This document shows, one piece after another, positions 10,709-12,419 of a stretch of DNA of 64,000 nucleotides. The translations under genes were made by a program, and so were the position numbers. This stretch comes from Streptomyces sp. NRRL F-5123 (GTDB lineage Bacteria; Actinomycetota; Actinomycetes; Streptomycetales; Streptomycetaceae), in assembly GCF_000721495.1 (NCBI RefSeq), contig NZ_JOHY01000037.1:112284-176283 (forward strand), given 5' to 3'. The notes beneath the pieces are model-generated. The model was not told the origin of the DNA. It was given only the letters and a program-made list of their open reading frames with translations, and made no database searches. How positions within the stretch are numbered: position 1 is the stretch's first letter; each line of letters starts with the position of its first letter.

Positions 10709-11458
10709 TCAGTACTTGGCCCCGACGTGCAGATCCATGAGCTCCACGGAGGCCCGGCGGGCGACAGAGACGCTGTACGGCCGCTTGCCGCCTCCGGCTA
10801 CCCTCCATTCCACGCCGACCAAGTCGAGGGTTTCGCAGAAGAGCGCACGTATGCCGTCGGAGACGTTGGTGAAGAAATACCGCGGGTACTCGTAGCGCTT
10901 CGGTTCGCCTCCAACCAGCCTTGTCGTCCAGTTGGTGATGCGGCATCCGTCGGAGTGCACCAAACCGCGGACGAACTCCCACGGGTACGTGTCGACGATC
11001 GTCTGCTGCCACGGTTCAAGCGCGATGTGACGCTCGTGCTTGCGACCGGGGCCATGCTGGGGAAAGACCGTCGGCCATTGCTTGCTGCATGCCGTGACCT
11101 GGACGCAGCCCTGCTGTCGCACACGGCAGACGGAGCCGCCCGGCCGGACGGCACGGATGGCGTGCTCGCAAGCATCGATGAGGCCGGGCCATGAGTTGGA
11201 ACAGGCGATCCGCAGGGCGTAGACGCCGCGGCCGTTTCGGCTGAGGCAGCCGTCGCCCAGGTAGAGCCCGAGTAGGTACGGGTAGGCCGGGCCGTCGGTG
11301 CACAGCGGGGTGCGGCCGGTGCCGGACATTCCCGGCCCGTGGGTGGCCCAGCCGCGGATGGCCGCACGCGATATGCCGGTGCTACGACTGGTGGCGTTGA
11401 GGCTGTGGCCTTCGGCAAGCAGGGCAAGGGCCCGACAACGGGTCGCGAGGTCGTACAT
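10709..11458 (-). CDS. LAGLIDADG-type protein with N-terminal helix-turn-helix
   Basis: 249-residue protein when started at ATG 11458 (MYDLATRCRALALL); the frame stays open upstream into the tRNA but without homology. Residues 1-40 resemble a helix-turn-helix of the resolvase/transposase type (ALLAEGHSLNATSRSTGIS, then RAAIRGWATHG). Two LAGLIDADG-like motifs follow, LLGLYLGDG (62-70) and FVRGLVHSDG (162-171), each ending in the acidic residue that normally binds metal, spaced about 100 residues apart as in single-chain homing endonucleases. There is no host intron or intein; it is free-standing. Codons are less G/C-biased than the neighbours, suggesting acquisition. It lies just downstream of the tRNA on the same strand. 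No strong ribosome binding site is visible. It could instead be a DNA-binding regulator with a dead nuclease fold. Confidence 0.75.
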   Translation of the reverse strand: MYDLATRCRALALLAEGHSLNATSRSTGISRAAIRGWATHGPGMSGTGRTPLCTDGPAYPYLLGLYLGDGCLSRNGRGVYALRIACSNSWPGLIDACEHAIRAVRPGGSVCRVRQQGCVQVTACSKQWPTVFPQHGPGRKHERHIALEPWQQTIVDTYPWEFVRGLVHSDGCRITNWTTRLVGGEPKRYEYPRYFFTNVSDGIRALFCETLDLVGVEWRVAGGGKRPYSVSVARRASVELMDLHVGAKY

Positions 11459-11565
11459 ACGACCGAGAATGCACGACGAAGGTCGACCGGCAGACGCGAC
11501 CGAACGAAAGTTCACCCTGTTCAGTGACCTTGCCAAAGGCACCTTTACCTGGGTGTGGGAAGTTG

Positions 11566-11641
11566 TGGTACCCCGGGTGGGATTCGAACCCACGCTGGAT
11601 GCTGTTTGAGAGCACTGCCTCTACCGCTGGGCTACCGGGGC
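11566..11641 (-). tRNA. tRNA with anticodon CAA (Leu) but a class I, short variable loop
   Basis: A full 76-base cloverleaf reads on the minus strand from 11641. Acceptor GCCCCGG pairs with CCGGGGT (first pair G-U), discriminator A and encoded CCA (11568-11566). D stem GCC/GGC, anticodon stem GTGCT/AGCAT with loop CTCAAAC (anticodon CAA at 11608-11606, T33 and A37 present), T stem GTGGG/CCCAC with TTCGAAT loop. The variable loop is only CCAGC. Normal bacterial tRNA-Leu are class II with a long variable arm, so the anticodon and body disagree. Identity by anticodon is leucine; real aminoacylation is unknown. Confidence 0.88.
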
Positions 11642-11741
11642 TCCTTGCGAAACGCGGGGCCTACGGCGGTCCTGCGTGGTCCTACCTTAGCGGAGCTGGG
11701 TAGGCTCTAGTAGCAGCACCCCGCCTGAACCGAGGAGCACC

Positions 11742-12419
11742 GTGAGCGCCCCCGACGAGCCCGCCGCGCAGTCCGGCGAGCAGACCGATCCGCCCGCCGA
11801 CCAGCCGTCCGAGCAGCCCGCGGCATCGTCGCACGTACCCCCGCAGACCACCCGTGTGGTGATCGCGGAGGACGAGGCGCTGATCCGGCTGGACCTCAAG
11901 GAGATGCTGGAGGAGGAGGGCTACGCGGTCGTCGGCGAGGCCGGCGACGGGGAGGCGGCGATCAAACTCGCCGAGGAACACCGCCCGGACCTGGTGATCC
12001 TCGACGTGAAGATGCCGGTGCTGGACGGGATCTCGGCGGCCGAGCGCATCGCGGGCGAGAAGCTCGCGCCGGTGCTGATGCTCACCGCCTTCTCGCAGCG
12101 CGAGCTGGTGGAGCGGGCGCGGGACGCGGGCGCGATGGCCTACCTGGTCAAGCCGTTCAGCAAGAGCGACCTGGTGCCGGCGATCGAGATGGCGGTCAGC
12201 CGCTTCCAGGAGCTGCGGGCGCTGGAGGACGAGGTCGCCGACCTCTCGCAGCGGCTGGAGACGCGCAAGCTGGTGGACCGCGCGAAGAGCGTGCTGCAGA
12301 CGAAGTACGGCCTGACGGAGCCGGCCGCCTTCCGCTGGATCCAGAAGACGTCGATGGACCGCCGGATGTCGATGCAGGCGGTGGCCCAGGCCGTGATCGA
12401 GGAGGTCGCGGGCGAGTAG
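11742..12419 (+). CDS. pdtaR: ANTAR-domain response regulator (PdtaR-like)
   Basis: Two-component response regulator that acts on RNA rather than DNA. GTG 11742 follows cgaggagcacc. A Pro/Glu-rich N-terminal extension (residues 1-36) precedes a receiver domain (37-155): acidic pair EDE at 43-45, phospho-acceptor Asp88 in DLVILDVKMPVLDG, Thr in MLTAF and Lys137 in YLVKPF. The ANTAR domain (about 160-222) has the expected three-helix pattern with VDRAKSVLQTKYGL and EPAAFRWIQKTSMDRRMSM. ANTAR proteins bind paired hairpins in nascent mRNA and cause antitermination. It sits beside the liv operon but is transcribed convergently, separated by a terminator. Length (225 residues) is normal for the actinobacterial family. 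Confidence 0.95.
   Translation: MSAPDEPAAQSGEQTDPPADQPSEQPAASSHVPPQTTRVVIAEDEALIRLDLKEMLEEEGYAVVGEAGDGEAAIKLAEEHRPDLVILDVKMPVLDGISAAERIAGEKLAPVLMLTAFSQRELVERARDAGAMAYLVKPFSKSDLVPAIEMAVSRFQELRALEDEVADLSQRLETRKLVDRAKSVLQTKYGLTEPAAFRWIQKTSMDRRMSMQAVAQAVIEEVAGE

What the first reader, a model, noticed from the sequence alone, without database searches (positions are those of the whole stretch)
11566..11641. A class I-shaped tRNA carrying the leucine anticodon CAA
Seen directly: a complete 76-base cloverleaf with encoded CCA, 7-base anticodon loop CTCAAAC and a 5-base variable loop. Established: bacterial tRNA-Leu are class II with a long variable arm, which LeuRS uses. Inference: this molecule is either a non-canonical leucine isoacceptor, charged by another synthetase, or devoted to something other than normal decoding. 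TTG codons are rare in such genomes, which makes a specialised role plausible. Its neighbour is a LAGLIDADG/HTH protein.
Basis: partly seen in the sequence, partly recalled or inferred. Interest (0 to 1): 0.72.

Follow-up and report, generated by a model that had tools for sequence, protein, structure and literature searches.

The report
Leucine tRNA without its long arm
A bacterial leucine transfer RNA lacks the long extra arm that textbooks give to all bacterial leucine tRNAs, and in relatives this short form and the normal form replace each other at the same chromosomal spot, apparently again and again.

Summary
In detail: a complete class I-shaped tRNA with anticodon CAA lies at 11566-11641, minus strand. 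It is not decaying: relatives keep CAA while stems covary. It is the only CAA tRNA found in its genome; the other Leu tRNAs found are class II. Of 61 genomes (own included), 42 have a class I CAA tRNA, 16 a class II one, none was found with both, 3 have neither. Both forms sit beside the same ANTAR regulator gene (56 of 58 loci), and the class label needs 13 changes, 9 forced, on that gene's tree. The body type carries leucine anticodons: 126 of 127 viral tRNAs (1 unassigned) and 24 of 24 bacterial ones; phage tRNA arrays are rich in it. Most likely it is a working leucine tRNA for UUG, charged by the genome's single LeuRS; a non-decoding role is not supported. Its class tracks the subtype of the neighbouring HTH-LAGLIDADG gene, suggesting endonuclease-linked cassettes; that step is inferred. 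Charging and expression were not tested.

The parts
11566..11641 (-). class I-shaped tRNA-Leu(CAA), 76 nt with encoded CCA
   Evidence: ARAGORN; Rfam RF00005 56.5 bits; covariation in relatives
11606..11608 (-). anticodon CAA (positions 34-36), followed by A37
   Evidence: read from the sequence; T33-C34-A35-A36-A37 invariant in the 30 relatives' sequences aligned
11594..11598 (-). 5-base variable loop CCAGC where bacterial tRNA-Leu normally has a long arm; its last base C48 pairs with G15 (A15-U48 in most relatives)
   Evidence: read from the sequence; Levitt pair A-U in 16 and G-C in 9 of 25 distinct rows
10709..11458 (-). downstream HTH plus LAGLIDADG-like protein, candidate free-standing homing endonuclease, 249 aa from the ATG
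   Evidence: Pfam HTH_23 and LAGLIDADG_3 below cut-off in the window's copy, LAGLIDADG_3 above cut-off in homologues L010 and L013; subtype tracks tRNA class
11742..12419 (+). ANTAR-domain response regulator, the syntenic neighbour on the 5' side of the tRNA
   Evidence: Pfam Response_reg and ANTAR; a homologue lies in 40 of 42 class I and 16 of 16 class II CAA loci

Best explanation
It is a functional leucine tRNA that decodes UUG and lacks the long variable arm. The cellular LeuRS charges it, relying on A73 and the D/T-loop elbow rather than on the arm (inferred from E. coli LeuRS). It is one of two alternative alleles, class I or class II, of one chromosomal tRNA-Leu(CAA) locus beside an ANTAR regulator gene. 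The alleles have replaced each other many times in Actinomycetota. The class I body belongs to a wider family, common in phage tRNA arrays, that carries leucine anticodons. Shown: structure, conservation, sole CAA tRNA found in its genome, alternation with class II at the same locus, leucine-only assigned anticodons of the body type, one LeuRS gene in this genome. Inferred: leucylation, expression, and movement of the alleles as a cassette with the adjacent HTH-LAGLIDADG gene.
For: Complete cloverleaf. Compensatory changes with fixed anticodon. Own genome: 64 RF00005 matches; Leu = CAG, GAG x2, TAA, TAG (class II) and this one CAA. Of 61 genomes, own included: 42 class I CAA, 16 class II CAA, 0 found with both, 3 with neither (G015 at 71% and G051 at 81% complete, G060 at 94%). 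Same locus: a homologue of the ANTAR regulator lies in 16 of 16 class II and 40 of 42 class I loci; the two without it are fragments of 1.7 and 1.9 kb. The class label needs 13 changes on the tree of that regulator, 9 forced by well-supported branches; shuffled mean 14.3. In five of six cross-class comparisons, DNA that is 80-100% identical further upstream falls to 32-46% in the 50 columns before the tRNA. Body = leucine: 126 of 127 viral tRNAs with the D-arm motif, 1 unassigned; 24 of 24 bacterial ones; 29 of 29 loci; the matches of at least 67 bits to the CAA model that were read are all Leu. One LeuRS over the family cut-off in this genome and in 59 of 61 genomes in a capped listing. UUG sits at Leu-majority columns in 49 of 69 cases. 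E. coli tRNA-Leu lacking the arm stays chargeable (PMC9976931, passages).
Against: No charging or expression data. No sigma70-like promoter or terminator found at 11350-11800, though Streptomyces promoters are poorly covered by that scan. The window's copy has G15-C48 where E. coli LeuRS prefers A15-U48; by my reading, Trp and Asn tRNAs of this genome have A15-U48 too, so the pair is not Leu-specific here. 20 of 69 UUG sites are not Leu-majority columns; the 69 include at least one site from G060, which has neither CAA tRNA, and three TTG-rich genes dominate the 40 rows printed. UUG could also be read by the UAA tRNA through wobble, so the CAA tRNA need not be essential. For 29 of the 42 class I genomes the best class II-model match was not read out; absence of class II CAA there rests on scores of 86.6 bits or less and on the pattern search, and the scores alone are not proof, since G053's true class II CAA tRNA scores only 82.3. 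One of the six cross-class comparisons (G045/G047) does not show the clean drop: its last three bins before the tRNA are 60, 58 and 80%.
Confidence: 0.88

Rival explanations
1. The tRNA is charged by another synthetase and mistranslates UUG, or installs another amino acid, like the tRNA-ProX system of Streptomyces.
For: Streptomyces do carry dual-identity tRNAs (PMC11415595, passages). The long arm is missing and G15-C48 replaces A15-U48 in the window's copy.
Against: Assigned anticodons on the body type are leucine only. It alternates with class II Leu(CAA) at one locus. UUG mostly falls on Leu columns. Of the tRNA-ProX marks, A33, A34 and A15-A48 are absent; G21 may be present, depending on how the D loop is numbered (read). 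I recognised no synthetase among the ORFs at 7-17 kb (my reading; no family search of them all).
Confidence: 0.04
2. It is a leucine tRNA, or tRNA-like RNA, with a specialised role outside normal decoding (regulatory, or donor of Leu for non-ribosomal chemistry).
For: UUG is rare (3 of 319 Leu codons), and the UAA tRNA could in principle read UUG.
Against: It is the only CAA anticodon found in the genome, the anticodon is strictly kept, and sister genomes have an ordinary class II tRNA in its place.
Confidence: 0.05
3. It is a decaying or captured phage tRNA with no function.
For: The same body type is common in phage arrays.
Against: Compensatory stem changes, 97.5% pairing, fixed chromosomal neighbourhood, wide conservation, and no other CAA tRNA found.
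Confidence: 0.03
4. Class I and class II alleles reflect ancient duplication with lineage sorting and vertical loss, not repeated replacement.
For: Both classes are spread across the order and class sampled.
Against: No genome was found with both CAA alleles; 13 changes on the regulator tree; identity breaks at the tRNA in five of six cross-class comparisons.
Confidence: 0.15

Closest known systems
Canonical bacterial (class II) tRNA-Leu(CAA)
   Same: Anticodon, A73, G18G19, 3-bp D stem by my reading, same chromosomal locus in relatives
   Different: No long variable arm; different acceptor and D-stem sequences, 38-54% identity over the tRNA in six cross-class comparisons, so a replaced gene rather than a simple arm deletion
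Short-variable-loop tRNA-Leu(TAG) in a mycobacterial tRNA gene cluster (PMC6582537, passages)
   Same: Leucine anticodon on a short-variable-loop body; reported in one sentence of the passages seen
   Different: There an extra copy beside a normal class II isoacceptor in a tRNA array; here the sole CAA tRNA found, at a fixed chromosomal locus
Phage-encoded tRNA-Leu of 74-77 nt
   Same: Same body type; best full-length match to a typed family consensus is 80.8% (Pseudomonas phage vB_PseuGesM_254)
   Different: Part of phage tRNA arrays, with several leucine anticodons
Human mitochondrial tRNA-Leu(UUR) (PMC9976931, passages)
   Same: Leucylated without a long arm; identity from A73 and A14
   Different: Organellar, different sequence and synthetase
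T4/T6 SegB, a free-standing homing endonuclease in a phage tRNA region (PMC13096335, passages)
   Same: Works like: endonuclease gene beside tRNA genes, co-conversion of flanking DNA
   Different: SegB is a phage enzyme; the LAGLIDADG-like protein here is a chromosomal bacterial gene whose cutting is untested, and the two were not compared by sequence

Membership tests
Bacterial tRNA-Leu (as an isoacceptor) | Leucine anticodon | tested here: met
   CAA
Bacterial tRNA-Leu (as an isoacceptor) | Discriminator A73 and G18G19 | tested here: met
   A73 invariant in 45 of 45 rows of alignment A3 and the two Gs invariant or nearly so (rows chosen as tRNA-Leu); both present in the window's copy
Bacterial tRNA-Leu (as an isoacceptor) | A15-U48 Levitt pair (E. 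coli determinant, PMC9976931) | tested here: not met
   Window copy has G15-C48; family A-U 42 of 45, G-C 3 of 45
Bacterial tRNA-Leu (as an isoacceptor) | Leucylation by LeuRS | not testable with these tools
   One LeuRS gene over the cut-off in the genome; no charging data
Class II tRNA | Variable arm of about 10 or more bases | tested here: not met
   5-base loop
tRNA-ProX dual-identity tRNAs | A34, A33, A15-A48 (PMC11415595, passages) | tested here: not met
   C34, T33, G15-C48
Allo-tRNA (8/4 or 9/3) | 8/4 or 9/3 acceptor/T-stem geometry (PMC7609411, passages) | tested here: not met
   7-bp acceptor and 5-bp T stem
Free-standing LAGLIDADG homing endonuclease (neighbour gene) | LAGLIDADG domain | tested here: inconclusive
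   PF14528 14.5 bits in the window copy, below the 22.5 cut-off; 26.8 and 25.2 bits in two homologues
Free-standing LAGLIDADG homing endonuclease (neighbour gene) | Site-specific cutting of the alternative allele and homing | not testable with these tools
   Only indirect: subtype tracks tRNA class

The most novel reading that the evidence does not exclude
Arm-less leucine tRNAs are phage-type alleles that repeatedly invade the bacterial tRNA-Leu locus as a cassette driven by the adjacent HTH-LAGLIDADG endonuclease, each allele protected from the other's nuclease. They persist because losing the arm escapes nucleases and toxins that attack long variable arms, as Septu and retron-Eco7 attack tRNA-Tyr (PMC13096335, passages). 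A core translation gene would then be under a selfish-element and defence arms race.
Probability: 0.25. Interest if true: 0.9.

Novelty: new variant of a known kind. Interest (0 to 1): 0.77.

Why it matters
The rule that bacterial leucine tRNAs are class II is used to define, predict and annotate them. It fails in a sizeable share of one phylum: 85 of 296 evenly drawn Actinomycetota genomes have a match of at least 73 bits to the broad arm-less model (my count; the cut is mine and only the 29 top loci were read out, all short tRNA-Leu), and in many phages. Near-identical genomes with either form give a direct test of what the long arm is for, of how LeuRS recognises its tRNA, and of whether tRNA alleles can be carried by homing endonucleases.

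Tried and rejected
Dual-identity tRNA (tRNA-ProX), allo-tRNA, pseudogene and non-decoding roles were considered and rejected as listed under rivals and membership. A simple in-place deletion of the arm was rejected, because class I and class II alleles of related genomes differ in acceptor and D stem as well (38-54% identity over the tRNA in the six cross-class comparisons; the class I/class I control is 100%). An inverted repeat flanking the tRNA (TTTCGAAGG...CCTTCGAA) looked striking in a few loci, but only 4 of 42 class I loci reach 7 bases, and the window's own copy reaches 3. The plasmid search gave one hit, a chromosome-sized Nonomuraea record without annotation there. No match at E<=1e-3 in the 5,426 E. 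coli genomes with an Enterobacter phage copy as query. PDB search of the LAGLIDADG-like protein gave only 2ab5 at E=0.14. The phylum pattern scan was noisy: its reversed-pattern control hits about as often, so only loci confirmed by ARAGORN were used (24 of 30 fetched). Structure prediction, homologous-protein search and six of eight viral scans were not used. Literature: ten searches in a library that lacks most subscription papers; the only description of a bacterial tRNA-Leu with a short variable loop that I met is one sentence in PMC6582537 (passages). A paper on M. tuberculosis names Leu-2, 3 and 5 as having long loops, which hints that others there are short (PMC11541572, passages). Passages were also looked at in PMC6297222, PMC9569102, PMC6459853 and PMC5733544, and PMC6409571 had no match to the terms; none bore on this. 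Mukai et al. 2017 on novel cloverleafs was recalled, not read; the DOI I tried was not held.

Full report
Observation. The window holds one tRNA, tRNA-Leu(caa), at 11566-11641 on the minus strand; Rfam agrees with 56.5 bits. It has a 7/3/5/5 stem cloverleaf, a 5-base variable loop, T33-C34-A35-A36-A37, A73 and an encoded CCA.

It is real and under selection. A 211-base query matches 37 of 61 genomes, own included, and ARAGORN reads tRNA-Leu(caa) in all 30 fetched loci. In the 30-row alignment the anticodon, A37 and A73 are invariant, while D, anticodon and T stems change by compensation: 97.5% of cells pair, 11 of 21 pairs vary on both sides, 63 two-sided cells against 18.7 in shuffles, and sliding the partners destroys the signal. 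The 15-48 Levitt pair itself covaries, A-U in 16 and G-C in 9 of 25 distinct rows; the window's copy is G-C. One weakness: the 31-39 pair is a mismatch in 13 of 25 rows (A31, C39 in the printed alignment).

It is the only CAA tRNA found in the genome. RF00005 gives 64 matches in G000. ARAGORN over the fetched stretches finds Leu CAG, GAG (two genes), TAA and TAG, all class II, and this one CAA. One 118-nt match has no ARAGORN gene and looks like tRNA-Sec (my reading). UUG is rare: 3 of 319 Leu codons in six ORFs of the window.

Class I and class II alternate. A covariance model of the class I CAA tRNA (R1) was run over 61 genomes (own plus 60). Class I CAA tRNAs score at least 79 bits; ordinary tRNAs that were read (Met, Arg) reach at most 65.4; class I Leu tRNAs with other anticodons range down to about 63 and so overlap the ordinary ones. 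A model of the class II CAA tRNA (R2) finds matches above 95 bits in 15 genomes, all read as CAA by ARAGORN, plus G053 found by pattern. Totals: 42 class I CAA, 16 class II CAA, none with both, 3 with neither (G015 and G051 are 71% and 81% complete; G060 is 94% complete and has a class I TAA tRNA). Caveat: for the class I genomes I read out the best class II-model match in 12 of 42 (all TAA or CAG), plus the own genome in full. The other 29 rest on scores of 86.6 bits or less and on the pattern search, and G053's true class II CAA tRNA scores only 82.3, so scores alone do not exclude one.

They are alleles of one locus. A homologue of the ANTAR response regulator at 11742-12419 (Pfam) lies in 16 of 16 class II loci and in 40 of 42 class I loci; the other two loci are fragments of 1.7 and 1.9 kb. 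On a tree of that protein (56 rows) the class label needs 13 changes, 9 of them forced by well-supported branches; the label is hardly more clustered than when shuffled (mean 14.3; 121 of 500 shuffles as low). This is a gene tree, several rows have long branches and might be paralogues, so the count is of changes on that tree, not of dated events. Six cross-class comparisons were made. In five (G019/G002, G019/G034, G013/G001, G016/G023, G049/G041) DNA is 80-100% identical (94-100% in the last three) at 100-600 columns upstream, then 72-94%, then 32-46% in the last 50 columns before the tRNA; in G049/G041 it recovers to 74-94% from about 100 columns downstream. In the sixth (G045/G047) the last three bins are 60, 58 and 80%, so the break is less clean. 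The class I/class I control G002/G034 stays at 88-100% up to the tRNA. The tRNA appears to have been swapped, not eroded.

The body means leucine. The R1 matches of at least 67 bits that were read are all leucine, with CAG, TAA and TAG beside CAA, and some short GAG tRNAs lie next to them. In G044, among the stretches read, CAA and TAG are class I, CAG, GAG and TAA exist as class II, and there are extra class I CAG and GAG copies. A D-arm motif scan of IMG/VR without anticodon constraint, pooled with an earlier scan that had fixed A35, gives 127 ARAGORN tRNAs with the motif: 126 leucine (TAA 47, TAG 38, CAA 29, CAG 6, AAG 3, GAG 3) and 1 unassigned. 123 of the 127 come from loci of the A35-fixed scan. 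Of the 15 stretches only in the unconstrained scan, 4 carry a tRNA (3 Leu, 1 unassigned) and in 11 ARAGORN finds none; 2 of the 120 stretches of the first scan also have none. In 30 bacterial loci of the phylum sample, whose pattern fixed no anticodon base, 24 had an ARAGORN tRNA, all leucine. An alignment of 45 diverse members, chosen as tRNA-Leu, has A73 invariant, A15-U48 in 42, and 238 two-sided cells against 51.7 in shuffles.

Distribution. The broad model R3 was run over 296 evenly drawn Actinomycetota genomes. Scores show no sharp gap (75.4, 73.6, 70.1, 68.5 bits); with a cut at 73 bits, 85 of 296 genomes have a match, by my count. The 29 fetched top loci are all class I tRNA-Leu (TAA 22, CAA 7); lower ones were not read. 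In GenBank phages a typed consensus matches 243 of 50,697 records at E<=0.01, 85 of them over at least 80% of its length; of the 40 listed, some of them duplicate records, 34 are annotated tRNA-Leu, 1 tRNA-Lys and 5 have no annotation there. In five phage regions read, eight of nine tRNA-Leu genes are 74-77 nt and one is 86 nt, while Ser and Tyr genes are 84-93 nt. In the 120 viral loci, chosen for a class I Leu, tRNA-Leu is under 80 nt in 171 and longer in 36, whereas Ser is 1 to 45 and Tyr 1 to 21. So in these arrays the arm is missing from leucine tRNAs, not from Ser or Tyr.

Mechanism. E. coli LeuRS needs A73 and the elbow (A15-U48, G18G19, A20a), not the long arm, and tRNA-Leu variants without it stay active (PMC9976931, passages). 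In the capped listing, 59 of 61 genomes show one LeuRS over the TIGR00396 cut-off (G015's is partial), G006 has two, and G058 has fragments on two contigs; the own genome has one. No dedicated enzyme is needed or seen. UUG codons in LeuRS genes of genomes without a class II CAA tRNA fall in Leu-majority columns in 49 of 69 cases, against 6 of 8 in class II genomes (30 LeuRS loci, G060 counted with the first group). I therefore infer ordinary leucylation and UUG decoding.

Why it switches. The gene just downstream is an HTH plus LAGLIDADG-like protein; Pfam support is below cut-off in the window's copy and above it in two homologues. It is patchy. Its subtype (GDGC or GDGH/GDGY after the first motif, classified by a script pattern) tracks the tRNA class: in 58 loci of the 61-genome set, class I has 18 C and 3 H/Y (21 none or other), class II has 0 C and 11 H (5 none); Fisher p=2.8e-6, not corrected for relatedness. 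In all loci, most of them fetched by a class I pattern, the table is 88/7 and 0/11. On a quick tree of this protein (107 rows, 96 of them class I) the tRNA class changes 5 times against 10.6 in shuffles, whereas on the regulator tree it changes 13 times. This fits a cassette of tRNA plus endonuclease, but G049/G041 differ in tRNA class with similar downstream DNA, so the two need not always move together. The closest working analogue is SegB, which sits in a phage tRNA region; free-standing endonucleases can co-convert flanking DNA (PMC13096335, passages). [quoted passage not shown] Both links are inference.

Prior art. PMC6582537 notes in one sentence a cluster-encoded tRNA-Leu(TAG) with a short variable loop in mycobacteria (passages). 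PMC7609411, a review of non-canonical tRNAs, lists Leu as class II and does not describe this in the passages seen. I found no description of the chromosomal class switch in ten searches of a library that lacks most subscription papers.

Noticed in passing
G000 contig C1:147348-153795 (L069, L087), outside the window: Three further odd tRNAs of the same genome, a class I-length tRNA-Ser(GCT) of 73 nt, a tRNA-Ala(GGC) and a second tRNA-Trp(CCA), share nearly the same D arm (tagcgcagaggcagRcgc) within 6.5 kb.
   Followed up: no
L253, L264, L298 (G044, G047, G045) and L251, L262, L263 (G038, G043, G046): Class I tRNA-Leu(CAG) genes sit next to an unusual tRNA-Leu(GAG), short (75 nt) in one genus and 86-89 nt in another; a normal class II GAG also exists in G044 and G045, where it was looked for.
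   Followed up: partly
L456, L458, L459, L460, L463, L464, L467, L468 (viral contigs): Several viral contigs seem to hold only the 5' part of a class I tRNA-Leu followed by other sequence, three of them (L460, L464, L468) near-identical, as if it were an attachment-site remnant.
   Followed up: no
L363:974-1047, L366:7013-7086, L339:4228-4300 (viral contigs): Other short-variable-loop tRNA-Leu with a different, class II-like D arm, which suggests that the arm was lost more than once.
   Followed up: no
G006 contig C1:1307778-1310585 and 6173335-6176178: G006 carries two LeuRS genes over the family cut-off; the one read (L534) has many TTG codons in the rows printed.
   Followed up: no
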